Assembly: GCF_036373705.1 (NCBI RefSeq)
Contig: NC_089853.1
Location: 29,843,568 to 29,907,567 of the forward strand
DNA length: 64,000 nt
DNA from: Amia ocellicauda
Lineage: Eukaryota; Chordata; Actinopteri; Amiiformes; Amiidae
Direction of reading: 5' to 3'
Each line of letters starts with the position of its first letter. The first letter of the stretch is position 1. Positions 14,055 to 63,576 of this stretch are shown in pieces. The position numbers were made by a program, and so were the translations under genes. Under the pieces are notes generated by a model. It was not told the DNA's origin. It saw only the letters and a program-made list of their open reading frames with translations, and made no database searches.

Positions 14055-14447
14055 TCACAAGGTGCATTTGCTCTTCTGTCCCAGAGTCGGGTGTCCACAG
14101 TGTAAAAATTCGTTCTCGTCATTCTCCTCCGGCTCGTTGCTCTTCGCCAAGTGCCGTTTGGAGACAAGGTCCCTGGCGTTCTCCGCTTTGCGAGTGGAGG
14201 GGCGGCAGGGCTGGCCCAGGGGCTGCCGGGAGGGTGCTCTGCAGGGCTGCTTGTGCTCCACGCTCAGGAAAGTGGCGGCGGCGGCTGCCCTGCCCTCTCG
14301 CCCCGCAGGGCCCTCTGCCTGCCTCTGCCGGTGCAGTTCACATCTGGCCACCAAAGGCTTTCCAATGACCTCCTGCACACTTTCCACGATGCGTCGCATT
14401 TTTTCAGGGTGCGTATAATGCAAATCCACCTTGATCACCAGAGGCGT
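14055..14447 (-). CDS. malt1-like: Paracaspase last coding exon (residues 542-671)
   Basis: Acceptor ttttcgtag at 14448. It begins TPLVIKVDLHYTHPEK and includes EVIGKPLVARCELHR, matching the end of the human MALT1 Ig3 region (VNVGKPLIAKLDMHR). The tail beyond is Ala/Arg/Pro-rich and unlike human MALT1, ending at TGA 14055-14057. Residues 647-652, PEENDE, fit the TRAF6-binding consensus PxExx(acidic/aromatic). Open frames on the plus strand here are shadows. Confidence 0.85.
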   Translation of the reverse strand, partial: TPLVIKVDLHYTHPEKMRRIVESVQEVIGKPLVARCELHRQRQAEGPAGREGRAAAAATFLSVEHKQPCRAPSRQPLGQPCRPSTRKAENARDLVSKRHLAKSNEPEENDENEFLHCGHPTLGQKSKCTL

Positions 14448-17400
14448 CTACGAAAACACAGACATGCACACATACAAAGATGATTAGTAAACCACTATTA
14501 TTTATATTCTTTATAGTGTTACCTAAACCATCTCAGGCCAATGCAGCATAATAATAACTATTTTCAAATGCTAACCCTTCACAAGTCTAAAAAGGCTTTA
14601 AATTTACATCTCAACATAATACAACACATTGGGGTGTGACGTCAAATAGATTAATGGGAGATTATGATCATCTCTTGTAATACATCAATATCTGATTCAC
14701 TGTAATTTCACCACTAAGAAAGTAAATGTACTTCTCTAAAGCAACGTACTATAGTTAACTGGCTCACTAATGGTGAAATACCTTTAGTTTCTGGAGGCCG
14801 CATAGTCTTAAACTGCAGTCTGGTTTATCAGGACCGCTCATAAGCAAGGAATCCACTGCATCCGACCTGCTTGCACTGTTTGAGAAGACATCGTCCATTG
14901 CCTGCACAGGGAGGACGGGTGAAAATGCAGTTTAGTACCAATGGCAATGGTGATTACATGGCTTTAGCGAAGAACGAGGACTTAAAATAAACATTAGGGT
15001 TGTTGCAGTTCGTCTCAATCACCTAGAATAGTGCAAGTCAGGTAACGTTCAAACTATGTACAAAAACAATGTTATTGTGACTTGGAGGACCATGGTTGAT
15101 CATACATTTTTTTGAAAAAGAAAATGAGATATAAGACTGTGTACTCTATTTATTGAAACTAATATTTACACTCACCTAAAGGATTATTAGGAACACCATA
15201 CTAATACTGTGTTTGACCCCCTTTCGCCTTCAGAACTGCCTTAATTCTACGTGGCATTGATTCAACAAGGTGCTGAAAGCATTCTTTAGAAATGTTGGCC
15301 CATATTGATAGGATAGCATCTTGCAGTTGATGGAGATTTGTGGGATGCACATCCAGGGCACGAAGCTCCCGTTCCACCACATCCCAAAGATGCTCTATTG
15401 GGTTGAGATCTGGTGACTGTGGGGGCCAGTTTAGTACAGTGAACTCATTGTCATGTTCAAGAAACCAATTTGAAATGATTCAACCTTTGTGACATGGTGC
15501 ATTATCCTGCTGGAAGTAGCCATCAGAGGATGGGTACATGGTGGTCATAAAGGGATGGACATGGTCAGAAACAATGCTCAGGTAGGCCGTGGCATTTAAA
15601 CGATGCCCAATTGGCACTAAGGGGCCTAAAGTGTGCCAAGAAAACATCCCCCACACCATTACACCACCACCACCAGCCTGCACAGTGGTAACAAGGCATG
15701 ATGGATCCATGTTCTCATTCTGTTTACGCCAAATTCTGACTCAACAGAAATCGAGACTCATCAGACCAGGCAACATTTTTCCAGTCTCCAACTGTCCAAT
15801 TTTGGTGAGCTTGTGCAAATTGTAGCCTCTTTTTCCTATTTGTAGTGGAGATGAGTGGTACCCGGTGGGGTCTTCTGCTGTTGTAGCCCATCCGCCTCAA
15901 GGTTGTACGTGTTGTGGCTTCACAAATGATTTGCTGCATACCTCGGTTGTAACGAGTGGTTATTTCAGTCAAAGTTGCTCTTCTATCAGCTTGAATCAGT
16001 CGGCCCATTCTCCTCTGACCTCTAGCATCAACAAGGCATTTTCGCCCACAGGACTGCCGCATACTGGATGTTTTTCCCTTTTCACACCATTCTTTGTAAA
16101 CCCTAGAAATGGTTGTGCGTGAAAATCCCAGTAACTGAGCAGATGAAATACTCAGACTGGCCCGTCTGGTACCAACAACCATGCCACGCTCAAAATTGCT
16201 TAAATCACCTTTCTTTCCCATTCAGACATTCAGTTTGGAGTTCAGGAGATTGTCTTGACCAGGACCACACCCCTAAATGCATTGAAGCAACTGCCATGTG
16301 ATTGGTTGGTTAGATAATTGCATTAATGAGAAATTGAACAGGTGTTCCTAATAATCCTTTAGGTGAGTGTAATTTGAACTGTTTTCTACATGTGCATCAT
16401 AATTTATAACCTCTAGAGGTCGCCATGTTACAAGCTAAAAATAGGAATGTACAGGCAGGACTGAAACTGACAATGTTTTCATCAGTGGGCACCTGCAAAT
16501 ATTACTTGCCAGAATGAATACTTGCTGAAGTGGTGGTTTCAAAATCCCTTGGCCTTGTGCCATGTCTTTTTCATGCCTGTTTTAACTGTTGCGTACTTGT
16601 AGCTGTAATCCAATTTTATTGATTTAAGTTGATATTTTTTCACAGAAATAAATTAGTGTAAAATTATATTTTCTGAATCTAGAATGAAGAGACAACACTG
16701 CATATCTAAAAAAAAAAAAAAATTGTTCAAGCTTCTGTAAATGTATTAAATTCACCCAACCTCAAAGCAGGAGCTTTCCTCACATTCTACAACTTAGAGT
16801 TTAGGTTATATTACGAGAACTTAAGATATTTTTTAGGAACAATTTTGAGCAGAATCCAATCTATGTGACCAACTTAAAGTAAAGCAATTGTAAACAGTGG
16901 TCAGAAATGATGAGCGTGTGTTACAGAGGAGCAGAAGCACAAAGCCAAACAACAGGGGGCTTACCCATACGAGACGGGACAAATTTCACTGTCATTTCTG
17001 AAATGGAACGACGTTTCAAGCGGAACTAACATGAACAAAAATGTAGCTAACCACTTTGGCCCATGGGAGGCTTAAATGAGTGGTTAAGGGAGGCTTAAGA
17101 TACCGTTCAGTAAAAAGCTGCAGAGGAAGTGTGTGTGTGTGTTTTGGGCGGGGGGGGAATACAGTCATCTGGATGTTCCTTTAACCATTGCACCTCTGGA
17201 ACTGGTGGGCGAATACAGACGCTGTGGTTTAATGGATTGTCTCTCATAGCATGTGGCTCTCTTAGCCTTGAAAGTTGATTAAGTTGTAGGTGTTCAGAAG
17301 CTGTGTCATGCTGACTCCTTTGTGCTTTTTAGATATTTTTTCCTCTCCTTTTAGCAACTCACAGAGTCCACAGCAACTCTCCACATGGGCTTTGTATGAG

Positions 17401-20400
17401 CAACAACACATCCCTTCAACGGACCCTCTTATTCACAATGAAAACGAAATTCAGACTGGAAGACTGGAGGGCAAATGCTTTTATTAGATCCCCCCCCTGC
17501 CCTCACCCAGGTCTTCCATAAAAATCTATCGATAGCCCCCTTCAGGACGTCCCCAGCAAAGTGCACTCACCGGAATGCTACGCAGATTGACACTGCAGTC
17601 CATGGCTGTGGGGGGGGTTCTCTTCACCGTGGCGTACATGATCATGACATTGGAGAACAAGGCAAAAAAGCTCAGCTCAACCTCAACCCCGCAGGCGAAG
17701 CTCAACAAGCGTCTCTCCGGCAGCTCTGTAAAAACCATTCAGACACAAGGTCACGTCAAATAGCTGATATACAATGCACAAGCAATCATCGACAGGGTGG
17801 TTTTCCCCCTCTGTGAGGGAATTTTCTTTCCCTGGACAAAAGCACCAAGTTTGAAAGATGTTGCCATTTACATTGAACACAAAATGCTCATTGCGGACTG
17901 AGCCATTACAACTGAATACAAAACTGTCATTCGCGAGTTTGCATTATTGCAAGTGAAAAGCTACATTTTATTTGTGCACTTTCATTTTAATTGTTGTCAT
18001 GTTCTCTACAGAAACTCAGGGAGGTTTGAGAACACAGTGGCTGGTGCAGTGTTTCTCGTCTTCATTAAAACCCAAGTCTGCAATCTATATGAATTACCTC
18101 TCTCCCCCATGTATTTACAGAGCTGTCAGGTGGCTACCAAGTTCTATTTCTAACAGTGGAAAAAAGTAAAACAGAAAATACAAAAAGAGGAAGCTAGCTT
18201 TGAGATAGAAAAAACGAAAGCGAATGAAGATCCTAATTTCATGTCTGAATAGAAGCCAAATGCAAAGAGAGGGACACATACCATTACATTAAAATATTGA
18301 AGTCAATTGCAAATTCTATATGGAAAACTTGTTATTTGTAGTACCATTTCAAATATTTGCAAGAAGACTAATGGGCCTATAGTTCTTCAGATCTTTGTCT
18401 CCTTTCTTGTGAAGGAGGATGACAGTTGTGTTGTTCCATTTATCTGGGATTTGTTTAACTCTTAAGAGTTTGTGAAAAGGATTGCAAGAATTTTCTCTAG
18501 TTCTTCTCCAGCTTCGTTTAGGATCTATACTATGATTCCACCATCTTCAAAATGTTCCACTATCTTCTTTATGGCATAGCCTACCTCTTCTGCAACCACC
18601 TCCTTCACTTGTGTTTATTTACTCCTATCACCAATACCATATAGTTTAATGTTGAATTCTTCCACTCTCTGGATAATCGGATCTCTGGTTTTGATTATTG
18701 TACCATCACTATTTGTCAGGGCAATACAATTATATATATTACAACAATATACTATACATCTACGCACATATCTATCCACACATGATCACTGACAAAACTA
18801 TCTCAACTATCTAACTAACTCAAATACAATGCTATGAATACATATTACGTTGTGCCTAGGTTGTAAATCAAAATAAAATCTACACCCTCCTTTCTGTATG
18901 CAAACTATACTGTAAGTCATTTAGATTGTAATAAAAATCCACTAAAAAGACACTGACGCAAAAAGGGCAATTCCAAAGCTGACGACCCTGGCGTTCCAGA
19001 GAAAGTGTCTGGGCCGATAAATACACATAACACCTGAAGGGACTCTTTGTTTCAGATGCTGCAGAAGAATGGAGAGGGAGAGAGGGGATATAGGGAGAAA
19101 AGAGGGACTGAATGGTAGGAGGGAACAGCTTGGTGAAGAGAGCAATGAGTAAAGCACCAGGCTTTGAAACTGACTGACGTAATGACATGGCCTCACCGTT
19201 GGCCTGTCTCCAATACAGGTTTCTGAGCTGCAGCTCCACTGTGTGTCCTGTATTGCAGAAGTCGTCGGTCAGCGCCCGGGGGTCCTTTAGTGTGTGCTTG
19301 ATCTCCATCACCTGCCTCCCAGTGATGAGTGGGTCTCTCCCTAGATCTGCAAATGTGAAGAAATGTCAGGCAAGTTCAAATGTAGTGCACAAGCAGAGTC
19401 ATTTGGAGAGTGGAATCTGGTTCATTTCTGTGCCTCCTCCCATGCAATCTCAAAACTGTATGTGGTTATATATTAAGAAAAACCACAATGTGCATGGTAG
19501 TCTTATCAGTGAAACAGTCACAGTCAAACTACATAAACAATACAGACTTTATTATATTGCCGTTTAGTTAAATTACTAATAAAAAGATTATCTATATTAA
19601 AAGGTAACCAATGTCTTCCTGCTTAAGCCTTACAGTTGCACTGGATTTTCTGTGTCAAGGATGTTGTTTACGACTTCCATCATACATAAATGTTTATGAG
19701 TTTCATGTCTTTCTCTTTTATCATCAAACCAAATGTGAGCAGAAAAACAAATGCAACATGCAGAAAATGCTTTTATGATAGCCTTTCACATTTCTGGGAT
19801 AATAGGCATGAAAGAAAGACAAACCCTGAGGACTATTTCCGGACTGGTTTCCATAACAATAAATCTATCAAACACAAAATGGGAAGTGACCCTCCAGTTA
19901 AAGAAACATGAAGGAGGAGTTTCAGGGCCAGATTAAATCAAAACTTTGACCCACCCGCTAATAGCAAACTAAAAACCTGTACATCATAGCGGTTACATTT
20001 CTGATTAGGAGAAAGTGGCATCTGACTAAAAATGCAGCTGTAACTGAGTACATTTCTGTAGTTTTCTATTAGCGGGTGGGTCAAAGTTTTGATTTAATCC
20101 CAGCCTCAGACTCTGCAGCATATAGGACATTAAACTGAACCATATCAGTGTTTTACAAATGAAATGGGAACACAATCAGTTCAAGGGGTGTTTTCCATAT
20201 TATTTTCAATTAATAAAATAGGACACAATTTCAAATACTAGTTTTTCGATTGCATGCTTCAAAGCTCAACACCAATGAATGAGACCAACAGGGGTTTTAA
20301 TGTTTATATAATCCTTAATTTGCTCCCCTCCTATTTCAGTAGTTAAATATCAATACAGATACAGTACAGTTACAATTCGGGGGAAAGAGGACACGGAAAA

Positions 20401-23400
20401 GCAGCCAAAGTTATAAATAAGCACTGGTGGATTCACCATAGGAAATATGTGTCACAAATATCTCAATTACGATCACCACATTACTGTCTGCATGTCAGTG
20501 GCTGCTTGCCTTACACTAGAGTGTACTCTGAGCTGCACCTGAAGTACTATATATAGGTAGTTAGCAGGTCCATTTGCTAGCATTGTACCAGAAACCTGTG
20601 ATTTTTACTGGGCCTATGTGCTACCCTCTGCCAGGCAGGGCGCTTTGCCTTTTTGAAAGTTCCAGGCTGAAGTTGTGGCGGAGCAGCTGCTGCAAGTCCC
20701 GAGGTCAGGCGCTCTCACATTTCTGCAGCTTGGAAGCCAACACTGGTGTGAATTTCCAGGGAATGAGCTCACCATTTACGCAGCTCGGTACATACAAAGC
20801 CCAGTCGTGTTACCAAGAGACCCGGCAAACAACAAAACAACTCCTGCCCCCAAAAGCCAAGCCAAGAGGTCGAGTCAGCCTTGCGGTTCCACCTTGGGGA
20901 GGCAACAGGGGTGACCGCAGGAATGTCTTGCCAGTCAGGTCATTTGTTTTGATTGTTCGTAAAGCTGTTGCGCATTTTAACATATTTAAAGGCGCCACCC
21001 AAATCAGAAAACAGAGTTATTATCCATAAATTGTATAACCCTGTATCACATAAATCTTATTTTCTTTATATTGTACTGTGTTTATTCTTTATATTGTCTC
21101 TATATTGTACACAGTGATGCCTCTCCAAGTCAAAACAGCGCTGCGCTCATGGGGAATGCGAGTGTTGTTGTTGTAGAGGGTCTGGTGGGGCCTTGCGAAC
21201 TTACCCTCCAGCACCTGATCAAGAACGTGAGTAACTTTCTCCGGCAGCAAGATGTGTTTGTTGAGGTACTTGGTGAAGATGCCGGAGCTCCTCTCTCCAT
21301 CCTGCACCTCATACGCCTCAGCATCTTCACTCCTGGATCAACAAGACACACGGACACGCCACCACACGCTTGGGATGAGCAAAATGTATCAATATTAAAT
21401 AATTTCCCACCATGAATGCTTTGGAAATGAAACAAATAAATATGTTGTTAATGAGGTAAAAGTAAAATCTGTGTAAACAGTTATATTTCTGATTCTGATA
21501 CATTTCAGAAACTGTAAAGAGATATAGATAGACAGAGGTACAGATGGATACTGAAACAGTTCTGTTGTTCTTTCCTTACTTACGTGGCATATCCATATAC
21601 TGTATTGCCCAACGGTGCCAGTGACCTGATCTCAGATGGAACACACCCCTGGTTATACCTTTTGAAAAGAAAATAGGATGTTAACGAGTAATTTTACACA
21701 CACATTATCTAGCCGTAGAATCATGTCTGTTTTGCTTCAGATATACTTCTTGTTATTATATGAAATAACTGGACACAAATGACTAATTTGCACAACCATC
21801 ACCAACATTTTACAGATAGCTTTTTGGTGTGAAACGTGCATTAACAGTGTAATGACTGAGTGTTAGTACTGATATTAAATGGGCACATAAAGAGCAAGAT
21901 GATGTAAAAAAGCAAACAACATTCTATACAATGCTGCAATAGTTTAAGACCATAAAACATTGAAGGCATGTAGGAACTGACCTTAAGCAACTTAACTCAA
22001 GCAGTTATATTATCCCCACTTGTTTGTTTATTTAAACAAGCATGATATGGGTGTCACATAGAAATCAAGCAAGGATAATTAATTTTGCTCCTCAGTAGTA
22101 CTGTCACATACCATTTTCTGCAAGTGTCCAACAAGACCACATTCAGTGCAGTGTGCTTCTCCTGCATGCTCTGCATTACTCTTTGCACACCAAGACAGTT
22201 CTCCCGTCTATAGGGCTGGGGTGCATCAATGGGAACCAAATAGTTTCGTCCTGAACATTCATAACCATGACCTGCATAGTAGAACAAAGCTGCAGGAGCA
22301 TCGGAGTGTCAGAGAGAAAACAAAAACAAAAACAAAATTAATGTCTACATACACACACATACAAAGACATATACATAAATTTTTCCAATGCAGCATTGAG
22401 AATATAAAATACTCCTTAAAATGAAACTGTATCAAGTAATGTAATCATAATGTATCTTTGTTGGAAAGACAACCTTAGAAGACTAATCTTAAATATGTGC
22501 ATTTGCAACACAATTTGTTATATTTGACTATTTATGGATTATCTACACATACAAGGATATCATGTCAAGAAGAATTATAGAAGGTCTGACAGTTCACCCT
22601 GATGACTGATATAAAACAAGAGTTTGTGGTAGATTATTAGATAAGTAAGAATTTCACCCACTGCTTAGAAAGGAGAGGGGGAGCATGTGATCTTAAAAGC
22701 TATAAATAGAGAATGGAAAAACACTTTAATTCTTTTAAAAAGAGGAAACAAGTATGAGGAAATGGAATAAGACATTACTGATAATCCAAATCTGCAGCCA
22801 AGCTGGCAGACTGACTTGACAGGACCTTTTAATATGACTTTACTTTAGATGTGTATCGACAGACTAAATAGAACCTCATTCCCCTTTCTCTTTTCTCTGT
22901 ATTAGCCACAGGGTGATGCAAATATAACCTCCAGACCGGCGCGAGGCTGAATAAATCAGGTTGCCAAAGCTTGAGACATAATGTAAATAAACTGTCAGTA
23001 CAGTTTGTCCCCTTTAAACATTAACACTTAGATTATTTATGGACAATAATTTATGGAAACCCATTCAATCTTGGTAGTATATTGAATTCCTGAAGAAAAT
23101 TAACTTGAAAAAAACAAGAGACTCCACAGTCAAATTGTGTTGACTGGCCAAACAGAGAGTGTATAAACAGAAAGCAACTAGAGAAAACTCTAGAAGCAAG
23201 AAGCATCTTTACTCATATGTCCTGCCAAAGCAATCAGTATGTTGAAAGCTTACAAAAAGCCTGTTGGAAAGGAAGTCGTCAAAATAATGCTGACAGGACT
23301 GGATTATACTGAGCATTCTCATGAATAAAAATAAATAATTGGGAGAATTACATATTTCAACATGACAACAGATTAGTTTCGTATGAATGACAAAACCTAA

Positions 23401-34513: not shown

Positions 34514-34630
34514 TGAGTTTCTGCAGTGCAGGAAAACCGTGGTGTAGTTATATGAGCCAGCAGATTTCTTTCCAGTTACTGTATAAAAGTTCACGCTCAA
34601 ACGCAGCTGGAGGTGTTCTGGAAAGCTCTG
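34474..34630 (-). CDS. malt1-like: Paracaspase exon 2 with the probable start codon (coding 34474-34513)
   Basis: Acceptor gtcttttctag at 34631, donor TTTAG|gtaagc. The first in-frame ATG is at 34513, giving MEDTTLCQGPPYLDIV, which runs straight into Ig1. The frame is open through the rest of this exon upstream (QSFPEHLQLRLSVNFYTVTG and on) and across the junction to exon 1, but meets TGA there with no ATG. I therefore treat the upstream part as 5' UTR. The upstream translation does not resemble a death domain. Confidence 0.6.
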
Positions 34631-34799
34631 CTAGAAAAGACAGATAACAAAAGGCATATTCATATTCCCAACCATTTAATAATAGTAGTAGGTGTGACCT
34701 TCTTGCGTTTCCCCCGGTGTGTGAAACCTGCTGAGCTGGGCTCCCAGGTGTAACCAGAACAATTTTCAGTTCTCCTATAAAGGCCTATATATTATAGGC

Positions 34800-34879
34800 C
34801 TACACACACATACACACACACACTCAAACAAATATATTTATATATACACACACACACGTGTATATATAAACACAAATAT

Positions 34880-34919
<40 letters not shown>

Positions 34920-34975
34920 ACACACACACACACATATATATGTACATATACATATACATATACTATACTATGTAG
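34800..34975. repeat. (CA)n/(TA)n low-complexity block
   Basis: Alternating CA and TA dinucleotide runs of mixed length, in the intron between paracaspase exons 1 and 2. Confidence 0.9.
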
Positions 34976-37430: not shown

Positions 37431-37454
37431 TGCCCCCGGCAGCGCGTGCTCATG

Positions 37455-53100: not shown

Positions 53101-56100
53101 AATAATATAACAGGAAATAGTTATTCACTAGTTACTTAGTTGTTTTTACAGCATTTATATATAGTCATAAAAGCATGTGTCTGTTTGTTCTTCAAGGCTG
53201 CAGAAGGCCAGATGCAAACAGAAAAGACAGAAGCCCGTGCTGGTAAGAAAATGGTCAACATCTCAACTGAACTTCTAGTACAAGAGCCACAGTTTATTTC
53301 TGGTGAAGAGATGCTAGACAACGTCAAAGCTGAGGCAAACAAATCCCTCATTTTGCACAATAGTGGAGAGTCTACACTTCGTCAATTGACGAAGAACACA
53401 CAGTCCCATTCCATGGGGTCAAACGAGGGCCACACAGAGCCTGTGACTGAACCACACAAACCAAGTCTTGGAAGCACAGTAGATATAGACATCACTTCCA
53501 AATTTCTTAGCATTTCATCTATGGACAATCTAGGCAAACAGTTGCCAACTGACGAAACAGGGGAAATCATGAAAGATGTAGAGAAGGACGGAAATGTGAA
53601 TGTTAGTGTTGTGCAAAGCAGAACAGGGGACATGAAAGCACAGGTCGTGTCCTGTCCCATAAAGGAAGACAATGCCAAGATGGAAGGAGAAGCAGCCGCA
53701 GGAATCAGAGATCAGGAAAATGAAGTCAAGTGCATTGATAAGCAGCCAGTTGAAGAGAAAGAGAGTCTCTCTGTTTCAGGGGTCCCTTTAGTGGCTGTGG
53801 AATTAAATGCTGCCAGTCTTCCTCAGATTGACGATGCAATAAAAGGTGTTGAGATTATAGAAGTCTTGGACTTGCAAATCACAGGTGTTTTGGAATCACC
53901 AACAATTGAAGCAGAAAACACATCAATTACTGAGCTGCCAAGCCTACTGATAGACATCAAACCTGTCTCACAGATTTCCACAATGGAAAGCAAAGTTAAA
54001 GAAATTCCAGAGGTTCCATTGGCCACTTTCCCAAATGAAGATGTCCCTGTCAAGGTCAAGATCCCAGAGCCAAAAGCTAGCATAGAGAGGGCAGAATTAG
54101 TTGAGAAAAAGATAGACAACCTGTTGGGTACAGACGTGGACAGCAGTTGTGTCCCCACCATAGAGTTACCCTCTGAAAATGACAATAGGATTCAAAAGCC
54201 TATCAAAATGGAGTCCACAGGTGAGAATTTAGAGCGCACTTCCATAATCACATCTGCTTTCAAAACAAATAGGCTACCTGCTATTGTGGTTCCTCCAATT
54301 TCTATCACTTACGAGGATAACAATCCAGTAAATGACAAATTCTCACTCTCAGAAGAAGGCCTATCTGTTGTAAAAGAGTCTGAATCTTTAGCCAGTATCC
54401 TCCGGGGTGTCAAGAAGGACCTTGATTCTGGAAAAGATTTTGGTCTGTCCTCTATAGAAAGCAAGAAAGAGAATATCTCACCGCTGAATGACACTGAGAC
54501 ACTCCCATGTACCAAGGAAGGCTCCCATACTGCTGGGGTGAGCACAAAGGATAGCACTACAGATGATTCATTAGGAATCCCTGTGCTTCCGAAAAGTAAC
54601 TCTTTTGAAGCACTGAACCTAAGTATTGCTGTTCCCTCCCCTGAAACAACAGCTCTAGGCACTGGCCCATCATTGCAGATTGGCAAACAGCAAGATGGCC
54701 TGAAATCTTCAATCGAGCCTCCATGTGTCAGGGAACAAGAGAAAGACAAGAAAATTACAGACTCTAACACTGAGTCGGTCTCCCAGCTTGGGAAACACTC
54801 AGAAGTCAAAGCTGAAACCGAAAAAAACTGTCCTCCTACAACAGAGACACCTCTCTTGAGTACTACAGCCCCCCGAAGGTTTGCCACAAAGGGTCCGCCA
54901 AGTCCAGAATCCCTGGGAGTGACTGGCGTTCCCGCAATCCGTGTCGACAGTTTCCTGTTTGAGGATAAGAACGTGGATGAGCACACAGGCAAAGACACTC
55001 CCCCGGCTGTGGCCTCTTGTGAAAGCAGCCCCAGACTGAAGCGCAGAGACAGCCTGACCCTCATCCCCTCTGCCACCCCAGAGGAGCTGGCCTCCGGGGC
55101 CAGACGTAAGATTTTCGTTCCAAAACCCAAACCGGAGGAGCCTGAAGGGTTGGTGGCTTTGGACCCTCAGTCAAAGAAGGAGGAAGTGCCCAAGAGAAGG
55201 AGACTCTCACAAGACCAGGAGGCTCCTCCTGTGTCTCCCGGACAGTCTAGGAGGTCATCCACTCTCTTGCAAGCGCCCAGTGGGCAGCAGACACCTCCTA
55301 CTGAAAGACGCTCCCCAAACCTTAGCAGGAAAAAGTCCTCCCTTGAGGTACCCAAACTATATGAGGAAAGAGTTGACAACACAGAGCCTGAGGTTCAACC
55401 AGAAGAGAAAGTAAAGCAAGACCCCTTCAGAGGTAAGCCTGACTGTCTATTTGAGTGGGCAGTAATAAAATATTTACTGTATGGACAATTACAGTTAGAT
55501 TAGAGACTTGCAATGGTGCTATATATAGAGAATTCACAGTTCTTTATCATTTCAGCCTGTTGTATCTGTGCCTCTGAAAAACTGGTTTAAAACCAAGACC
55601 AACTGTAGTCATACTTTTCTGAGACAGGTTCAAGGTGTTGGTATAAAAGTTGTTAACAATGAAAGAACCAGATTATTGATTGCACACTTGAAAACACAAA
55701 GAAAGTATGAAGAAGAGATGCTTATTTAAATAGAACCTTAGAGAAGAAATTACATGTTTTTTAAATGTTTGTCTAAGAGCTTTTTAAGAAATGGTTTGAA
55801 AATCTTAATAGTGAATTCACTTTATTTTGGTCATGGACTCGATACTGTTGTATTCAATCTTAGAAATCTTTAGCTGGTTAGTTTTTACCTGTACAAAAAA
55901 TCTGTAATTTTCAAAAGGGAATAGTAATGTAAAAACACAAGAAACTTGTAATTGTTACAAAAACATCATAAATAAGTGAAGAATTACACAAAAAGGACAC
56001 AAATGTAAATATCCAATATCTATACACACACACACACACACATACACAGATCAGCCATAACATTATGACCACTGACAGGTGAAGTGAATAACACTGATAA

Positions 56101-56882: not shown

Positions 56883-59800
56883 AGAGAGAGAGAAAAAAAA
56901 GAATATCTGTAGTTTTGGGCTCTACCTAATAGCCCAATAGAAAATGTCATAGAATGTAGCATTTTGGTCAGAGGCCATGTTTCATAGTTTGTTTTGGTAT
57001 GTTATATTTAGTTTCCTCCCTGCTGAAGAGTGTACGTCTAGAGACATGGCTCTCAATGGCAATGCTGACAATCACCATTTTTTTACAATGTTTAAAGTGT
57101 CTTAATTAATTTAGTAAAAAGTTATTATTTTGTGCCTGTCCAGAGCTTTGAATCGATGTGTGCCAGCATCTATTTAACTGTTATTCCTCCAACCTAACAT
57201 TTCCCCTTTATCTGGTCACACCTGTCTGATTGCTCTTCCCTGATGTCTCCCTCCACTCAGCTCCTCAGGTCATCCGCAAAATCAGGGCAGAGCCTTTCTC
57301 AGATGCCGGTGGACACTTGAAGCTTTGGTGTCAATTCTTCAATGTGCTCAGTGATTCCACTATAAAGTGGTATAGAGACGAAGTTGAAATTTTGGAAATG
57401 AAAAGAAGGTAAAATCTCCCCTTTCCTTACCCAAGACAATTGAATGAGATGATCTATTATTATTATTATTATCATCATTATTATTATTATTATGTTGTCA
57501 ATGTATTAGAAATAAAAGCACCAGAAAGTAAATACATAGAAAACTTACTATACATTGTGTGCAGAATTAATAGGCAATTATTAATTTTCAAGATGATTTC
57601 AACAGTTGGACCTATTCAATGCCATCAGTGAAGCCAAAACTTTATTTTGCATGTTTATTTTGAATGTTTAAGAAAGTGAGATGTGTCTTTCTCAGGGGGA
57701 AATACAAGAATTTCCTCAATGTGCATAATTATTAGGCAACTAAATTACAAATTATTATTTCTCCACTTACTTTAAAACTTAATAAATTTACAAGTATGTT
57801 TAACAAATAATAAGTATAAAATAACATAAAACTTAACAAATAACAGTTTTGGGCCTTTCATATTGATTCTATGCAATCCCTTCTTTTCAATGACTCTCAT
57901 GAGATTCCCATCCATAGAATTAGTCAGTTTCTTGATTTGTTCATGACCAAGTTTAGCTGAAGCAGCCACCACAGCCTCCCAGGTGTTGTTCAAAGATGTG
58001 TATTGTTTTCCCTCCCTGTAAATCTCATGCTTGAGAAGGGCCCACAAGTTCTCAATTGGGTTTAAATCAGGTGAGCAAGGGGGCCAGGTCATTATTCTGT
58101 CATTTTTGAAGCCTTTTCTAGCTAGCCAAGCAATGGAGTACTTGGACGCATGCGATAGAGTGTTGTCCTGCATAAATATCATGGTCCTCTTCAATGCTAC
58201 TGACTTCTTTTTTTTACTGTTTGATGAACATGTTTTCCAGAAACTGGCAGTAGTTTTGGGAGTTGATTTTCAGGCCATCTGCAACCCAAAAAGGTCCAAC
58301 TAGCTCATCGTTAATGATAGCAGCCCACACCATTACCCCACCCCCACCTTGCTGGAGCTTGACTCAAACTGGTGCCTGTGTCCATTACTGATCCAGGGTC
58401 TGGTCCATCAAGAGTCACTCTCATCTCATCTGTCCATAATTTTTTTGAAAAATCAGTTTAGGTATTTCTTAGCCCATTCTTGACAGGTTATGTTTTTTTA
58501 TTCAGTGGGATCGTGTTTCTGCCTTCCTGACCTTAGCAATGCCCTTGAGCACTTGACACCTTGTACTTCAGCTGATTCCAGGAAGGTTGCAGCTCTGAAA
58601 AATGGTTGCACTGGAGGCTAAAGGGTTCCTGGAGGCTTCATGTTTAATTCTTTGCAAGTCTTTTGCAGTTAATTTGCGCCTTTTCTTCTCAACATGTTTT
58701 ATGCGACCCAATACTCAATAGTTTGGAAATTTCAAATGTTTTGCATCCTTCTGATAGGCATTTACTTTTTTTTCTTTTCAGCATTAGTTAGATCCTTTTT
58801 TCTGCCAATTTTACCTGTGGTGAAAAGCTGCCTAATAATTATGCACACCTGAATATGAGGTATTTATCACTTTAAGCCCCACCCTCTTTCATGAAGCAAT
58901 TATATCACCTGAAAGTGATTGTACCCACTCATTATTTAGGTTGACATGGTTTGGAGTTAGAAAACTGTGCTTGGAAATAATAAATAATCACAATACCGAC
59001 TTGCCTGATAATTATGCACAAACTGTATACAGTAGATATTAGAAATGCTATTATGATATTATATGCCCAGGATAAATATTAGCTTATACAGGGCAGAGAC
59101 GTATTATTATTATGCTTTTTTTTAAGTAGTGACAATCCCACATTGATTTGCAGCATAAACAAAGCCTGTTATTTATTAATGAAGCCCACAGGTGTCACAG
59201 ACAGGTCATAATTAGTACAGTAAATCTACTGGTGGGTTGAAGCAGTGTTAGTTGAAGCTGCTTTATTTCCCCATCAGAATGTTCTTATGCCAGTGTGGTC
59301 ATTAAATCTATATCTGTTCCATAAGGACTGCACTGAATTGCAGTGTCAGCCAAATACTACTGCACAACCATGGCTCTGTAATATAGGGACCTCTTGTGGT
59401 TTAAAGATGAAACATTCTGAGACGTTTGACAGCATCGGGGACATTTCTACATCAAGGCCCTTCAGATTCCAGGGCATTTATAGTCTGTGGAAGAACAATC
59501 AACCACAATGTGTAGTTGATTTATGTGGATCGGACTCCAAGTAAACCTCACGTAAATATATTTTAGTAATTCTCACTATTCAATGGTTGATCACTAACTA
59601 TGGACTCTGTGCTTGAATTTTTTCTGGGAATTTATTTTGCAGCTCAGGAGACGAGAGTCAAGTAGCACTTGCCATTGTTCAGGTGACCAGCAGAGACTGC
59701 GGTGTGTATAGCTGCTCTATAGAGAACGAATACGGGACTGATTCCACAGACGTGTTACTCAGTGCAGAAGGTATGACATACAAACATGTATTACGGATCA

Positions 59801-62800
59801 CTGCAGCATTGAGTACAGCAGTTAAATATCGGTGTGCTGTCTTTATTTTTATACATTTTCATTTAAACTTGTGACTTTTATGTTCCATCTCATTAAATCA
59901 ATTCACACAAAAAATTCCTTCCTGAGTGTGGGTTATTCACATGCTCTTGTGTTCTTTTTCCAGTGCTGTCCGGACTCCTTTTGCGAGAAGATTTAGAAGG
60001 TGAGCTACATCTCCAAATCTCCAAAATTATATACTTGTTTTAAATGACATCATATATTTGGGAACATTTAAAAATAGACTGGACAGGATCCTTGGATCAC
60101 TCAGTTATTAATGGACACCAAACGAGCACGATGGGTCAAATGGCCTCCTCTCGTTTGCAAACTTTCAAACAATGCGGCTAAAAAATGACACCATGTAGAG
60201 TCATAATATCTAGGGATCCATCATTCCCAGGAAGTATAGCCAAAGGAGGTGTTTATACCCTGTTTGCTAAACACTTATATTAGACAATGATCACAAAAGA
60301 GCTGCTAAAATCTCAGTCAGTGTTTATTTCAATTGAAGTGCAGATCTCTTTTCCCTTCTCTGTGTTTCAGTTGGAGAGGAAATTGAGATGACCCCCATGC
60401 TGTTTACTAAGGGTCTGGCAGACTCAGGATACTGGGGAGAGAAGTTCTTCGGGCGGATCATGACACAGGAAGTGCACATTGGGGAAGGGTGCACACATAA
60501 AGCCTGCAGGGTAAAGGTTATCTATGGACTGGATCCCATATTCGAGTCGGGCAGCACCTGCATCATTAAAGTCCGAAACCCCATTGCGTATGGGACCAAG
60601 CAGGAGAACCACCTTGTTGAGAGAAACCTGGAGATCACTAAACAGGTAGGACAGCTGGATACTGAATACGGTACTGGGATATTCTCAGCATTAATTTCAA
60701 CCTTTCACTTTTCAAATAGACTTGTATAGACTATACAAATACAAATTAATGTGGTAAACCTGTAATTCTTAATAATAATTTCTACAGACTAAGGCCTAGA
60801 CCAATCAAACCTTTGAACCACCTGCAGATTGCAAATTACAAAGTTGTAGCCTATTACATTTTGATTTATAAATAGTATAAAGTGGTTTCTAACAATATAA
60901 TAAACTGCAATAGGGTACAGATTTGTACTTTGCAATTCTTGGGTAGGTCAAATTTTGGTTTGGTCTAGCCCTAAATCGCCCAATGTCAGTTTTTCCCGAG
61001 AACAATGTCTTTGCTGTCACTCTATGTTACAAACTGAAGGAATTCTAACACTCTGATCTTTGCATATTGGCAATTGTGTCACAGGGCTTTTATATCAACC
61101 AGGAAATGTTGGTAGCAATGGCTGGTTATTATACTTGCTCCTCCCATCATCATCACGCCCAACATCAAGTTCCAAAATGCAAAAGTGAGCTAAAAGAATT
61201 ATCCATATATTGTGTGTACTATTTTGAGGGTTTACATGTTTTCCACATTGTTTTATTCGTGTATTATTATTGTTCATTACATGAAAGTAATGTGGTTATG
61301 ACTCACTGGCAGCTGTCAAAGAAAACCTGAATTTGGTAATATGTTTGATGTCTGAGGGTATAGAATAACATGCTGTCAAATCTGTCAACTGTGGGGAATT
61401 CCCTGTACATTCTCTGCCAAAGCAATACTGTATAGCCTGTTCTTCTATAGTTGCGCTCCTGAAGAATACAGTGTTATGGAAAAATCACATTGTTTCAATG
61501 GGAGTTAAGCGGTTAGGGGGTAGTGCGTTTTGAAAACACCAACACTGACATTTGTCCTTACAGTTTGTTATATTATTGTTAGTTTGTATGTGTTCTTTTA
61601 TAATATCAGCATTTTAGTTTGATGATATTCGTGAATCGAATAAAAACATGAAAGGGACTTGGGGGTACATGTTAATGTATTAGTTGCTAAGAGATAGATG
61701 CGTATGCAGGCTGAAAAAAGACTGAGGTGCTAGGTGGCATAATAGCGTCTAGTAGTGGCACTGAGGCAGCACCAAGGCAGCTACCCAACCGCTGGCTCCT
61801 ACTGGTGTGATGTCTGCTTCGTCAATTGCATTATTCATATCCAATTCGTACAGGTGTTGTAAAAAATGTTTTATAAAAACATGTGTTATAGCAAAATGCA
61901 CTGTACTGTGTTTTATAGAAAGTTGTTTAAGAGATATTTCTCTGATGTGCCACTAAAAGTGAATTATTAAAACTATCTGAATATATGCAGTACCAAATAG
62001 GTTAAATTAAAGGGGAACTAGTGCAGTCGCAAAAGGAATTGGTTTATATGGAATCAGGAGTAGGAGTATTGAGTGTTTTTGTTTTCTCAGTGATTTTTAT
62101 GTTCCATTCTATCATTTTAGTAACTCTAAAAACTTAAAAATATAACCGTTATCACAATCATGGCTGCTATAAATACCCCCAAAGGAGAGCTCTTTCGTGT
62201 TTCAGGACAATGTAGTGTTGCAATGTCACTTTCACATCCTGAAATGGTAATGGTAGTCCTCTTCTTTGGAGTATTTACACAGTCATGATTGTGATGAAGG
62301 TTGTACTTTAGAGTTTCAGATGTTTCTAAAATGATGGAATGGGACAGAAAAATCACAGACATTTTACTTAAACACTAACCAACTAACACATTAGTACATA
62401 TAAACCAATCATTTTAGGGACTGCACTAGTTTCCCTATAACATGAGGTCAATAATTCTGTCCTAATGACCACCTATTTCAAATTAAAATGGAATATAAAT
62501 TGGTGTTGCTTTCCAATTCCATTGTCTTCAATCTATTTTGGCTGTAATTCCTGTTATCCCTTGATCGTACAGGAATGTAAGATACAGAACACTGCCCGTG
62601 AATACTGCAAAATCTTTGCTGCTGAGACAAGGGTGATTGAAAACTTTGGCCCGGCCCCAGAGTAAGTCTTGCAATCATTTTAAAACCCCAAACTTTAGTC
62701 TGAATCTGCTAGAAAAGAAAAGAAAAATAAATAAATGTAATCAATTTAACTTAACAGCTGCAAACAGATTCATGAATAGCTGTGTCAAAACCTTGAGAGA

Positions 62801-63576
62801 ATAGTAACCATATCTTATATCATATGAAGTCAACAGAGTAATTTTTTGACATTATATTATTTTCATGTATTGACATAAGTGATCAGATTTTATCCAATTT
62901 TTATCTTCACTTTAAAATGTACATTTAGTTGATGTCAATATTTTAAAATAATGAAGACAATACCAAAGGCTTAGCAGTTTTGTATAGCTTGGTTATACTT
63001 GGTTATTACATGTATACAGTGGTTTTCTGACCTGCTGTCTTGCTGGATATTGTTCCAACCGATCTCTCAGGTATTAAATTGTCTTACCTGAACTAATGAT
63101 TTGCTTAAATTGTTTAGTCTACAACAAGTTTGAGAATTTAATATCTCCCCCAGCTGTTTAAATAATAACAAAAAGCTCTGATTAGTTAACAGTTTACGTC
63201 AGTTAATTGGTTCAATTAAGTAATTCAGAGCTTAGCTGGAACAAAAACAAAGAGGACAGTGGGGCCCCGGGGCCAGGGCTGAGAACCACTGGCTTAGTGT
63301 CTCACAAGGAGTTATTGATTTTCAATCCCTTCCTTTCCCCTGCTTTGCCTTTCTACAGGATTATCCCCCTCCACCTGATCTACCGGCCTGCCAACACTAT
63401 TCCCTACGCCACGGTGGAGACAGACCTGGGCAGCTGCTACATGAAGTACTGTATGAGAGACGAGGGGGGGCGTCTGCTCATGAGAAATGTGTCGGAGATT
63501 GAGCAGAAGTGCTGCGCCTTTCAGCACTGGATTCACCAGTGGACAAACGGAAACTTACTAGTAACCATTTTGGAAG
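38045..63576 (+). CDS. alpk3: ALPK3, alpha-protein kinase 3 (3' end outside the window)
   Basis: Twelve coding exons join in frame, 4972 nt, 1657 complete codons. Exons: 38045-38196, 39794-39835, 41153-41274, 43995-44112, 44487-45894, 53197-55432, 57261-57408, 59643-59770, 59964-59999, 60371-60645, 62573-62661, 63359-63576. Order: N-terminal Ig (about 75-160), ALPK3-specific [15 protein letters not shown] (about 165), a long Ser/Glu-rich disordered middle, [12 protein letters not shown] (about 1240), a second Ig (about 1360-1450), then the alpha-kinase domain from about 1465. The match is to human ALPK3, not ALPK2. ALPK3 works in striated muscle, is linked to cardiomyopathy, and is reported to be an M-band scaffold, possibly a pseudokinase. 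The nucleotide-binding Lys (CIIKV, Lys1530) is present; the D-x-Q segment and zinc-binding cysteines lie past the edge. Human ALPK3 is about 1700-1900 aa. Confidence 0.95.
38197..39793 (+). other. ALPK3 intron 1
   Basis: AT-rich, no feature recognised. Confidence 0.6.
39794..39835 (+). CDS. alpk3: ALPK3 exon 2 (42 nt), residues 51-64
   Basis: Between tctgcatag and GGAG|gtaatc. Reads [14 protein letters not shown]. It is phase 2 on both sides and joins exon 1 to exon 3 in frame. Sequence is poorly conserved with human, so support is mainly from splice sites, phase and position. Confidence 0.7.
39836..41152 (+). other. ALPK3 intron 2
   Basis: AT-rich with a short CAA tract near 40240. No gene recognised. 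Confidence 0.6.
41153..41274 (+). CDS. alpk3: ALPK3 exon 3, residues 65-105 (start of Ig1)
   Basis: Acceptor tgtttgcag, donor TCAG|gtacag. [20 protein letters not shown] matches human AQLTEETQPLFETTLKSRSV, followed by the Ig B-strand (VKFSCVVSG). Confidence 0.95.
41275..43994 (+). other. ALPK3 intron 3
   Basis: AT-rich. It contains a possible SINE at about 43655-43757. No exon or RNA gene seen. Confidence 0.55.
43655..43757 (-). mobile_element. Possible tRNA-derived SINE fragment
   Basis: Read from the minus strand, GGGTGGCTCAGGTGGTTAGA has a good A box and looks like the head of a tRNA-derived SINE. No clear B box or tail. Confidence 0.35.
43995..44112 (+). CDS. alpk3: ALPK3 exon 4, residues 106-144 (Ig1)
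   Basis: Acceptor tttatccag, donor ACAA|gtacgt. [20 protein letters not shown] matches human [39 protein letters not shown] follows. Confidence 0.97.
44487..45894 (+). CDS. alpk3: ALPK3 exon 5, residues 145-614
   Basis: Acceptor cttttccag, donor TGAG|gtaaga. Ends Ig1 ([18 protein letters not shown]), then [40 protein letters not shown], a lysine run at about 336-340 that could be nuclear targeting, and YFSLKDMYF, all shared with human ALPK3. The rest is acidic, Ser-rich and weakly conserved. The frame runs on 144 nt past the donor, but this tail does not resemble ALPK3. Confidence 0.95.
46472..46642. mobile_element. Palindromic MITE, copy 2
   Basis: 171 bp with ends GGCCGGATTAAATCAAAACT and its partly decayed complement. 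Flanked by the direct repeat CAAAG (46467-46471 and 46643-46647). Confidence 0.87.
48540..49762 (+). mobile_element. Tc1-type transposon with intact transposase
   Basis: 1223 bp, flanked by TA at 48538-48539 and 49763-49764. Terminal repeats of about 29 bp begin CACTCACCTAAAGGATTATT; the right end carries one mismatch (AGTTGAGTG instead of AGGTGAGTG). It lies in ALPK3 intron 5 in the same direction as the host gene. Confidence 0.96.
48690..49730 (+). CDS. Tc1/mariner transposase, 346 aa, uninterrupted
   Basis: Cut-and-paste DNA transposase of the Tc1 branch. The N-terminal paired-type helix-turn-helix region (about 1-115) includes [20 protein letters not shown] and binds the terminal repeats. 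The DDE catalytic domain has WSDESRF (first Asp), [11 protein letters not shown] (second Asp) and [15 protein letters not shown] (Glu), the DD34E arrangement of Tc1. Length is normal for the family and there is no stop or frameshift. Start is the ATG before [12 protein letters not shown]. The second copy in this window (15169-16369) is broken in the same gene. Antisense frames here are shadows. Confidence 0.97.
   Translation: MGKKGDLSNFERGMVVGARRAGLSISQSAQLLGFSRTTISRVYKEWCEKGKTSSMRQSCGRKCLVDARGQRRMGRLIQADRRATLTEISTRYNRGMQQSICEATTRTTLRRMGYNSRRPHRVPLISTTNRKKRLQFAQAHQNWTVEDWKNVAWSDESRFLLRHSDGRVRIWRKQNENMDPSCLVTTVQAVGGGVMVWGMFSWHTLGPLVPIGHRLNATAYLSIVSDHVHPFMTTMYPSSDGYFQQDNAPCHKGRIISNWFLEHDNEFTVLNWPPQSPDLNPIEHLWDVVERELRALDVHPTNLHQLQDAILSIWANISKECFQHLVESMPRRIKAVLKAKGGQTQY
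50214..50393. mobile_element. Palindromic MITE, copy 3
   Basis: 180 bp, ends GGCTGGGATTAAATCAAAAC and the complement with GTGGGTGGGTCAAAGTTTTG. Flanked by CAAG (50210-50213 and 50394-50397). Confidence 0.88.
53197..55432 (+). CDS. alpk3: ALPK3 exon 6, residues 615-1359
   Basis: Acceptor tgttcttcaag, donor AGAG|gtaagc. A single 2236-nt exon coding a long Ser/Thr/Glu/Lys-rich, probably disordered segment. Recognisable ALPK3 blocks near the end are [32 protein letters not shown] and [16 protein letters not shown], matching human LTVPAIVVDEE, AATPEELALGARRK and GRKASMLEVPR. The 273-codon antisense frame at 54309-55130 is a shadow. Confidence 0.95.
56045..56843 (+). mobile_element. Second Tc1-like family, internally deleted copy
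   Basis: About 800 bp between TA dinucleotides. Terminal repeats of about 25 bp share ATCAGCCATAACATTATGA. The transposase reads on the plus strand: an N-terminal part (152 codons, [20 protein letters not shown] to WSDES) is followed by a C-terminal piece ([14 protein letters not shown] onward). The centre of the DDE domain, including the second Asp, is deleted. Located in ALPK3 intron 6. Confidence 0.93.
56175..56817 (+). pseudogene. Tc1-like transposase remnant with internal deletion
   Basis: HTH region and first catalytic Asp (WSDES, then TGA) are retained; about 100 residues are missing before [10 protein letters not shown]. The sequence is clearly distinct from the transposase at 48690-49730. 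Non-functional. Confidence 0.88.
56844..56892. repeat. (TA)n then (GA)n microsatellite at the transposon edge
   Basis: About 18 TA units abut the right TA target duplication of the preceding element, followed by a short GA run. Confidence 0.92.
57261..57408 (+). CDS. alpk3: ALPK3 exon 7, residues 1360-1408 (start of second Ig)
   Basis: Acceptor ctccactcag, donor GAAG|gtaaaa. [20 protein letters not shown] and [20 protein letters not shown] match human [20 protein letters not shown] and [20 protein letters not shown]. Confidence 0.97.
57455..57493. repeat. (TAT)n microsatellite
   Basis: About 13 TAT units with two ATC interruptions, just inside ALPK3 intron 7. Confidence 0.9.
57553..59025 (-). 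mobile_element. Third Tc1-like element, degenerate, with IR/DR-type ends
   Basis: About 1.47 kb between TA dinucleotides. Outer ends read TTGTGTGCAGAATTAATAGG (left) and the complement of CCTGATAATTATGCACAAAC (right). A second copy of the GTGCATAATTATTAGGCA motif sits about 170-180 bp inside each end (57721-57739 and about 58830-58847). The transposase is on the minus strand; its C-terminal part is still open at 57772-58194 and the rest is broken. Confidence 0.88.
57772..58194 (-). pseudogene. Tc1-like transposase, C-terminal part of a broken gene
   Basis: Contains [20 protein letters not shown] (second catalytic Asp region) and [20 protein letters not shown] (Glu). Upstream transposase sequence to about 58800 is disrupted by stops and frameshifts. 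Confidence 0.85.
59643..59770 (+). CDS. alpk3: ALPK3 exon 8, residues 1409-1451 (second Ig)
   Basis: Acceptor ttattttgcag, donor GAAG|gtatga. [20 protein letters not shown] matches human LAIVQASPVDCGVYRCTIHN, with the Ig D-x-G-x-Y-x-C signature. Confidence 0.97.
59964..59999 (+). CDS. alpk3: ALPK3 exon 9 (36 nt), residues 1452-1463
   Basis: Acceptor tttttccag, donor GAAG|gtgagc. [13 protein letters not shown] aligns with human VLSGFISREEGE. Symmetric phase 1. Confidence 0.92.
60040..60180. mobile_element. Interspersed repeat, family not determined
   Basis: The stretch CACCAAACGAGCACGATGGG followed by GGCCTCCTCTCGTTTG is a sequence I recall as the 3' part of a widespread fish repeat. Limits and class are uncertain. 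Confidence 0.4.
60371..60645 (+). CDS. alpk3: ALPK3 exon 10, residues 1464-1555 (N-lobe of alpha-kinase)
   Basis: Acceptor gtgtttcag, donor ACAG|gtagga. [20 protein letters not shown] is almost identical to human. [20 protein letters not shown] carries Lys1530, the expected nucleotide-binding lysine. The frame stays open past the donor, but that tail is not ALPK3. Confidence 0.97.
60646..62572 (+). other. ALPK3 intron 10
   Basis: Contains MITE copy 4. Otherwise AT-rich without recognisable genes. Confidence 0.55.
60793..60970. mobile_element. Palindromic MITE, copy 4 (most diverged)
   Basis: 178 bp, ends GGCCTAGACCAATCAAACCT and TTTTGGTTTGGTCTAGCC. Flanked by CTAA (60789-60792 and 60971-60974). 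Same architecture as the other copies but with many substitutions. Confidence 0.78.
62573..62661 (+). CDS. alpk3: ALPK3 exon 11, residues 1556-1584
   Basis: Acceptor tgatcgtacag, donor CCAGA|gtaagt. [20 protein letters not shown] matches human [20 protein letters not shown]. Confidence 0.97.
63017..63291. mobile_element. Possible hAT-type non-autonomous element
   Basis: The left end CAGTGGTTTTCTGACC and the right end GGGCTGAGAACCACTG form an imperfect inverted repeat; TTGTTCCAACC and GCTGGAACAAAAA continue the symmetry inward. No convincing 8-bp target duplication was found (CATGTATA against GCTTAGTG). Confidence 0.45.
63359..63576 (+). CDS. alpk3: ALPK3 exon 12, residues 1585-1657 (last exon in window)
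   Basis: Acceptor gcctttctacag, donor GAAG|gtaaga. [20 protein letters not shown] matches human IIPLYLIYRPANNIPYATLE, and [19 protein letters not shown] matches human FQHWLYQWTNGSFLVTDLA. The D-x-Q segment and zinc-binding part come in the next exon, outside the window. Confidence 0.97.

What the first reader, a model, noticed from the sequence alone, without database searches (positions are those of the whole stretch)
14055..63576. A MALT1-family paracaspase sits head-to-head with ALPK3, not ALPK2
Seen: a complete paracaspase gene on the minus strand is divergently adjacent to a gene with clear ALPK3-specific blocks. Known: human MALT1 lies next to ALPK2 on 18q21, while ALPK3 is on 15q25 with no paracaspase beside it; extra paracaspases (PCASP2, PCASP3) have been described in non-mammalian vertebrates. 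Inference: the ALPK-paracaspase pair was duplicated as a block in the early vertebrate genome duplications. This window would then hold the ALPK3-linked paracaspase lost from mammals.
Basis: partly seen in the sequence, partly recalled or inferred. Interest (0 to 1): 0.75.

Follow-up and report, generated by a model that had tools for sequence, protein, structure and literature searches.

The report
Third MALT1-like protease beside ALPK3
This genome carries three relatives of the human immune protease MALT1; the one in this window sits next to the muscle gene ALPK3, keeps its cutting site, but shows no trace of the part that plugs MALT1 into its usual immune signalling complex.

Summary
In detail: a minus-strand type 1 paracaspase (13 exons found, GT-AG throughout, 30699 to 14055) lies head-to-head with ALPK3 (plus strand, ATG 38045). 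C8 carries the real MALT1 (90% identical to human in the protease core), head-to-head with ALPK2. C28 carries a third copy, 12 kb from a RAX-type homeobox. The window copy (C4) lies with ALPK3, an SLC28 gene and a ZNF532/592-family gene; C8 has another ZNF532/592-family gene and a RAX-type gene. 'Complete' is not borne out: no death domain was found, and a genome-wide search with its second exon hits only the other two loci. The TRAF6 site TPEETG and K644 are gone, while catalytic His/Cys and the arginine pocket remain. Best reading: a fast-evolving ALPK3-linked ohnolog of MALT1, probably a protease uncoupled from BCL10/NF-kB. PCASP2 versus PCASP3, and the date of duplication, were not settled. 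Extra paracaspases are known; this linkage and a death-domain-less copy were not found in the papers searched.

The parts
14055..14447 (-). paracaspase last exon: end of Ig3, C-terminal tail, stop
14782..14901 (-). paracaspase exon, Ig3; position of the TRAF6 site TPEETG, here SRSDAVDS
17571..17725 (-). paracaspase exon, Ig3 start
   Evidence: PF18703 match at the same place
19197..19346 (-). paracaspase exon, end of caspase-like domain, W580 equivalent
21205..21332 (-). paracaspase exon, p10, E500 equivalent
21584..21658 (-). paracaspase exon, p10 start
22112..22289 (-). paracaspase exon with catalytic His (AGHGYE) and Cys (LLDTC)
26665..26868 (-). paracaspase exon, start of caspase-like domain, D365 equivalent
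27266..27301 (-). paracaspase mini exon, Ig2-caspase linker
   Evidence: frame and splice sites fit; similarity is short
28289..28385 (-). paracaspase exon, Ig2 second half
28816..28991 (-). paracaspase exon, Ig2 first half
29333..29471 (-). paracaspase exon, Ig1 second half
30575..30699 (-). paracaspase exon, Ig1 first half; begins in phase 1, where exon 3 of the other two modelled paracaspases begins
30700..38044 (.). interval between the two genes: no death-domain exon found on either strand; candidate short first exons at 30852-30835 and 34513-34475; high CpG ratio in the 1-kb bin at 35001 (1.17), moderate in the bins at 37001 and 38001 (0.60, 0.62)
38045..38191 (+). ALPK3 first coding exon, MGSRR...YLLNVRPE
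41151..41276 (+). ALPK3 exon, first Ig
   Evidence: 69% to recalled human ALPK3
43994..44113 (+). ALPK3 exon, first Ig
44488..46038 (+). ALPK3 large exon with the block YKIHQRWF (end not fixed)
53140..55503 (+). ALPK3 large open stretch, [12 protein letters not shown] block (exon ends not fixed)
57251..57406 (+). ALPK3 exon, second Ig
59626..59769 (+). ALPK3 exon, second Ig
60370..60645 (+). ALPK3 exon, start of alpha-kinase domain (Pfam match 0.0043, below its cut-off)
62555..62662 (+). ALPK3 exon, alpha-kinase domain
63360..63578 (+). ALPK3 exon, alpha-kinase domain; a further C-terminal exon lies past the window

Best explanation
The window holds the ALPK3-linked member of a set of three type 1 paracaspases that arose when a chromosome block holding an ALPK2/3 ancestor, a paracaspase and a ZNF532/592 ancestor was duplicated, most likely in the early vertebrate genome doublings. 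MALT1 stayed beside ALPK2, this copy beside ALPK3, and a third beside RAX. Since then this copy has evolved fastest, has lost (or changed beyond recognition) the two death-domain exons, and has lost the Ig3 TRAF6 site, while keeping Ig1, Ig2, the caspase-like domain with catalytic His and Cys and the acidic arginine pocket, and Ig3. Shown: gene structure, linkage, three loci, no death domain found, kept and lost residues. Inferred: duplication in 1R/2R. Inferred function: an arginine-directed protease that cannot be recruited by BCL10 through a death domain and lacks the main TRAF6 docking site, so it would act outside the standard CARD-CC/BCL10/MALT1 to NF-kB route, perhaps switched on by dimerising with itself or with MALT1 through the caspase-like and Ig domains.
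For: 13 exons, no stop, splice sites GT-AG at all 12 introns between them, 657 aa from Ig1. PF18703 matches in the genome: 8, all at three loci (C4, C8, C28). C8 copy: 90.0% identical to human MALT1 in p20 (117 of 130), has the death domain, TPEETG and PIETTD, and is head-to-head with an ALPK2 gene. Introns: of the window's 12, 11 could be compared with C8 and 9 with C28; phase agrees in 11 of 11 and 9 of 9, aligned position exactly in 9 and 7, the rest within 1-3 residues. Neighbours: the ZNF532/592-type query has three loci, C8 29 kb from MALT1, C4 49 kb right of the window, and C20; of 41 homeobox matches to the RAX query, two reach 94% or more, one 12 kb from the C28 paracaspase, one 94 kb from C8 MALT1; all others are 68% or less. 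SLC28 gene next to ALPK3. Literature: ALPK2/ALPK3 placed as 1R/2R products (PMC13143021, passages). Death-domain exon 2 of C8 finds C8 and C28 only, genome-wide. D365, H415, D462, C464, E500, E549, W580 kept; K644 and E653 changed. Rate: window differs at 88 of 508 columns where the other three agree, against 26 (C28), 9 (human), 9 (C8).
Against: No rooted tree: only human MALT1 and the three paralogs of this genome were compared, so the order of duplication is not shown. Only one genome was seen, so death-domain loss may be private to this species. The C28 copy has no ALPK in the 60 kb read, so it joins the set through RAX only. No ZNF532/592-type match was found in about 54 kb on the paracaspase side; the C4 gene lies on the ALPK3 side, so gene order differs between C4 and C8. 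No transcript was available, so the first exon and expression are unknown. The C28 model lacks the Ig2 second-half and linker exons and the C8 model the linker exon, which slightly affects identities. A weak C-terminal match to the human PVETTD region is no better than chance (289 of 2000 shuffles reach it).
Confidence: 0.8

Rival explanations
1. It is simply MALT1 (PCASP1) of this species, which happens to sit beside ALPK3 because ALPK2 or its paracaspase was lost.
For: Same head-to-head arrangement and clear MALT1 family similarity.
Against: A copy 90% identical to human MALT1 in p20 sits head-to-head with ALPK2 on C8.
Confidence: 0.02
2. It is an independent, lineage-specific duplicate that landed beside ALPK3 by chance, not a product of block duplication.
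For: Long branch (1.26 substitutions per site); no outgroup was available to date it; the 1R/2R timing is not tested here.
Against: Chance landing head-to-head beside the ALPK2 ohnolog, with a ZNF532/592-family gene also close and matching intron phases, is unlikely; it is about equally distant from C8 and C28 (43.9% each).
Confidence: 0.08
3. The gene is on its way to being a pseudogene: death domain gone, fast evolution, no function left.
For: No death domain found; 88 unique changes of 508 columns; no convincing first exon.
Against: 13 exons without a stop or broken splice site; catalytic pair and arginine pocket all kept.
Confidence: 0.12
4. The death domain is present but in exons too diverged, or placed elsewhere, to be seen.
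For: The protein evolves fast; the gene needs an upstream start exon that is not identified.
Against: No N in the window; the human MALT1 query finds the death-domain exons of both other paralogs (C8 3.8e-5 and 1.3e-15, C28 1.1e-8) but none here, nor do the paralogs' own death domains; a genome-wide search with exon 2 of C8 finds only those two.
Confidence: 0.15

Closest known systems
MALT1 / PCASP1 (human; PDB chains seen, among them 3uo8, 3k0w, 2g7r)
   Same: Ig1-Ig2-caspase-like-Ig3 order, catalytic His/Cys, arginine-pocket acids, head-to-head with an ALPK2/3-family gene (human arrangement recalled); intron layout as in the C8 MALT1
   Different: 44.0% identity over Ig1-Ig3 (247 of 561); no death domain found; TPEETG and K644 lost; beside ALPK3, not ALPK2
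PCASP2 and PCASP3 of jawed vertebrates (PMC5978004, passages and section 7 read; the 2016 paper that named them is not held)
   Same: An extra type 1 paracaspase outside the MALT1 line; three paralogs in all, as here
   Different: [quoted passage not shown] in this copy neither death domain nor TPEETG was found. Which of the two names applies was not settled.
Third paracaspase of this genome (C28, beside a RAX-type gene)
   Same: Same exon phases where comparable; same family
   Different: Keeps the death domain; slower (branch 0.51 against 1.26); 73.8% to human in p20 against 63.1%
ALPK3 (human, recalled letters)
   Same: Collinear match over 10 pieces from exon 1 to the kinase
   Different: Ordinary ortholog; in human no paracaspase beside it (recalled)

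Membership tests
type 1 paracaspase | caspase-like domain with catalytic His and Cys | tested here: met
   H415 and C464 equivalents kept; Peptidase_C14 1.8e-28
type 1 paracaspase | acidic pocket for arginine (D365, D462, E500; roles recalled) | tested here: met
   all three kept
type 1 paracaspase | two Ig domains before and one after the caspase-like domain | tested here: met
   Ig_3 (two stretches) and MALT1_Ig hits; alignment
type 1 paracaspase | N-terminal death domain | tested here: not met
   genome-wide. So filed as a variant, not a standard member
type 1 paracaspase | arginine-directed protease activity | not testable with these tools
   needs an assay
MALT1 / PCASP1 | closest to human MALT1 and beside ALPK2 | tested here: not met
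   the C8 locus fills that place
MALT1 / PCASP1 | PCASP1-only TRAF6 motifs TDEAVECTE and PVETTD (PMC5978004) | tested here: not met
   linker motif absent; PEENDE near the C-terminus fits the loose pattern but its alignment is chance-level
jawed-vertebrate paracaspase paralog (PCASP1-3) | TRAF6 site TPEETG in Ig3 (PMC5978004) | tested here: not met
   reads SRSDAVDS
PCASP2 or PCASP3 | position in a rooted tree with named PCASP2/PCASP3 | not tested
   no such sequences could be fetched; four-sequence tree is unrooted
ohnolog of MALT1 | shared neighbours between the two blocks | tested here: met
   ALPK2/3, ZNF532/592 family and paracaspase shared by C4 and C8; RAX type and paracaspase by C8 and C28
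ohnolog of MALT1 | duplication dated to 1R/2R, before the jawed-vertebrate split | not tested
   one genome only
ALPK3 | ALPK3-type N-terminal block and alpha-kinase domain | tested here: met
   (human letters recalled)

The most novel reading that the evidence does not exclude
All three vertebrate paracaspases are 1R/2R ohnologs that travelled with ALPK2, ALPK3 and RAX, and the ALPK3-linked one became, throughout a lineage and not only in this species, a death-domain-free, TRAF6-site-free protease that works apart from BCL10 and NF-kB, a natural separation of MALT1's cutting role from its scaffold role.
Probability: 0.4. Interest if true: 0.75.

Novelty: new variant of a known kind. Interest (0 to 1): 0.6.

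Why it matters
PMC5978004 (2018; passages read) says the sequence of events that gave jawed vertebrates their expanded set of paracaspases and partners cannot be determined. The linkage to ALPK2, ALPK3 and RAX gives a sequence-independent way to test it in any genome. A paracaspase that keeps the active site but lacks the BCL10-binding death domain and the common TRAF6 site would be a natural test of what MALT1 protease activity does without its scaffold role, a question of interest because MALT1 is a drug target.

Tried and rejected
Death domain: searched with human MALT1 by tblastn, Smith-Waterman on open stretches of 30.4-64 kb with shuffled queries as control (best 57, shuffled best 51-60), donor-phase scans, three-frame reading by eye, tblastn and an HMM with both paralogs of this genome (best tblastn E 0.12 at an unrelated place, best HMM E 1.7), and genome-wide with exon 2 of C8: none. 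The open stretch 34475-34630 that ends in ...CQGPPYL was tested as a diverged death-domain exon and rejected (450, 643 and 509 of 2000 shuffles reach its scores).

C-terminal TRAF6 motif: rejected as evidence, chance-level. Relatives in viral contigs: 31 pattern matches, none confirmed. Neighbour genes left of the window: none recognised by eye in 14 kb of window plus 40 kb beyond.

The alpha-kinase (PF02816), bombesin (PF02044) and 34400-34800 DNA searches were sent but did not complete, so TRPM6/TRPM7 and GRP/NMB linkage and the repeat nature of that stretch were not tested.

Papers: MALT1 + ALPK3, 0 papers; MALT1 + ALPK2 + synteny, 0; paracaspase + whole genome duplication, 1, on roquin, listing only; PCASP2/PCASP3, 2 papers, 1 relevant; searches on zebrafish malt1-3, ZNF592/ZNF532 paralogs and teleost MALT1 gave nothing I used (listings only). 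The 2016 paper that named PCASP2/3 is not held; what I say of it is recalled.

Full report
What is in the window. Exons of a type 1 paracaspase lie on the minus strand from 30699 to 14055. Thirteen exons join in frame with GT-AG at each of the 12 introns between them and give 657 residues from Ig1 to the stop. Pfam finds MALT1_Ig (1.1e-47), Peptidase_C14 (1.8e-28) and Ig domains. On the plus strand, ALPK3 begins at 38045 and runs past the window; human ALPK3 (letters recalled, not checked in a database) matches collinearly in ten pieces at 34 to 70% identity, besides two weak off-target hits near 8.1 kb, and a further C-terminal exon is just beyond the window. The two genes point away from each other.

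ALPK3 or ALPK2. A recalled ALPK3 block (YKIHQRWF...) hits the window at 2.6e-14 and neither the C8 nor the C28 region; a recalled ALPK2 block (ECSDVMTDY...) hits C8 at 1.5e-9 and neither the window nor C28. To the right of ALPK3 is an SLC28-type nucleoside transporter on the minus strand (PDB best match SLC28A3, 1.7e-50). In human, SLC28A1 is next to ALPK3 (recalled).

The whole genome. The window is G000:C4:29843568-29907567 of a 988-Mb assembly in 385 contigs. A search with the paracaspase-specific Ig family gives eight matches, all at three loci: C4 (window), C8 and C28. I fetched 60 kb around each of the other two.

C8 is MALT1. Its protein is 90.0% identical to human MALT1 in p20 (117 of 130) and 70.0% over Ig1-Ig3 (388 of 554); it has both death-domain exons, TPEETG and PIETTD. 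It is head-to-head with ALPK2, as in human (recalled). A C2H2 zinc-finger gene that I recognise as ZNF532-type (name recalled; Pfam shows C2H2 fingers only) ends 29 kb from its 3' end. A stretch that I read by eye as an acyltransferase of the OACYL/nrf-6 kind lies nearer; Pfam did not confirm it. A RAX-type homeobox is 94 kb away.

C28 is a third paracaspase with a death domain, 73.8% to human in p20. It lies 12 kb from a RAX-type homeobox (homeodomain and OAR motif) and near an AP-1 mu gene. No ALPK was seen in the 60 kb read.

Shared blocks. The ZNF532/592-type query has three loci in the genome: C8 beside MALT1 (the query itself), C4 49 kb to the right of the window (50% identity), and C20. 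Of 41 matches to the RAX query two reach 94% or more, one on C8 and one on C28; the rest are 68% or less. So C4 and C8 share paracaspase, ALPK2/3 and a ZNF532/592-family gene within about 100 kb, and C8 and C28 share paracaspase and RAX type. Gene order is not identical: on C4 the zinc-finger gene is on the ALPK3 side, on C8 on the MALT1 side. Of the window's 12 introns, 11 can be compared with C8 and 9 with C28 (the automatic models missed the linker exon of C8, and the Ig2 second-half and linker exons of C28). Phase agrees in 11 of 11 and 9 of 9; the aligned position is the same in 9 and 7, and within 1-3 residues in the others. A 2026 paper places ALPK2 and ALPK3 as products of 1R/2R from gene order (PMC13143021; passages read). 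The dating itself is inference, since I saw one genome and no outgroup.

What is missing. The human MALT1 query finds the death-domain exons of C8 (3.8e-5 and 1.3e-15) and C28 (1.1e-8) but none in the window. Smith-Waterman over 30.4-64 kb, and a scan and an HMM with the death domains of both paralogs and human, also found nothing. A genome-wide search with death-domain exon 2 of C8 returned two places, C8 itself and C28 (48% identity). The window has no N. The first detectable exon starts in phase 1 where exon 3 of the other two begins, as expected if the two death-domain exons are gone. The true start is unknown.

What is kept and lost within the rest. Equivalents of human D365, H415, D462, C464, E500, E549 and W580 are kept; K644 is N and E653 is A (the roles of these residues are recalled). 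[quoted passage not shown] the C28 copy reads SPQDAG. A PEENDE near the C-terminus fits the loose TRAF6 pattern, but its alignment to human PVETTD is no better than chance (289 of 2000 shuffles).

Tree and rate. On 508 ungapped columns (LG+G4) the window branch is 1.26 substitutions per site, C28 0.51, C8 0.20, human 0.22, internal 0.17; the tree is unrooted and has four sequences only. Where the other three agree, the window differs at 88 columns, C28 at 26, human at 9, C8 at 9. Window is 44.0% to human, 43.9% to C8 and 43.9% to C28. This argues against MALT1 but cannot tell PCASP2 from PCASP3.

How it probably works. With the catalytic pair and arginine pocket kept, an arginine-directed protease is the simplest reading. 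Without a death domain it should not join the BCL10 filament the way MALT1 does, and without TPEETG it should recruit TRAF6 poorly. It may dimerise through the caspase-like domain, alone or with MALT1. This is inference; I know of no assay. Decay into a pseudogene is the main rival on function, set at 0.12.

Known or new. Extra paracaspases in jawed vertebrates are known (PMC5978004; the 2016 source is not held). In the library searched I found no paper that mentions both MALT1 and ALPK3, none with MALT1, ALPK2 and synteny, and only one, on another family, with paracaspase and whole genome duplication (listing). Subscription papers and database annotations were not searched, so the linkage may be visible to anyone browsing an annotated fish genome.

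Noticed in passing
window 11446-11650 minus: A full-length U3 snoRNA gene (Rfam RF00012, 152 bits) in a 1-kb bin with a high CpG ratio (1.08).
   Followed up: no
window 12171-12242 minus: A tRNA-His (GTG) gene 0.5 kb from the U3 gene.
   Followed up: no
window 48690-49730 plus; L022 8230-9267 minus; L010 2532-3569 minus; L014 7160-8197 minus: Open 346-aa Tc1/mariner transposase frames, nearly alike by eye, in the window, in its left flank and twice around MALT1 on C8, which suggests a recently active family. A decayed copy lies at 15201-16221 minus.
   Followed up: partly
window 56142-56814 plus and 57772-58269 minus: Fragments of other Tc1-like transposases inside ALPK3 introns.
   Followed up: no
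window 7001-9000: Stretch with GC 0.50-0.55 and CpG ratio 0.7-0.8, looking like a promoter, but no gene was recognised by eye in the window's first 14 kb or 40 kb beyond.
   Followed up: partly
G000:C22:24421255-24480365: Four strong caspase-domain matches within 60 kb, two with a stop inside: a caspase cluster.
   Followed up: no
L016 9752-9889 minus (C28:14109752-14109889): The third paracaspase reads SPQDAG where MALT1 has the TRAF6 site TPEETG, so the statement that all three jawed-vertebrate paralogs keep it may not hold in this species.
   Followed up: partly
G000:C20:24573765-24574220: A third ZNF532/592-family gene, perhaps ZNF687 (recalled), marking a possible fourth block; no paracaspase match was listed on C20 in the PF18703 search.
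   Followed up: no
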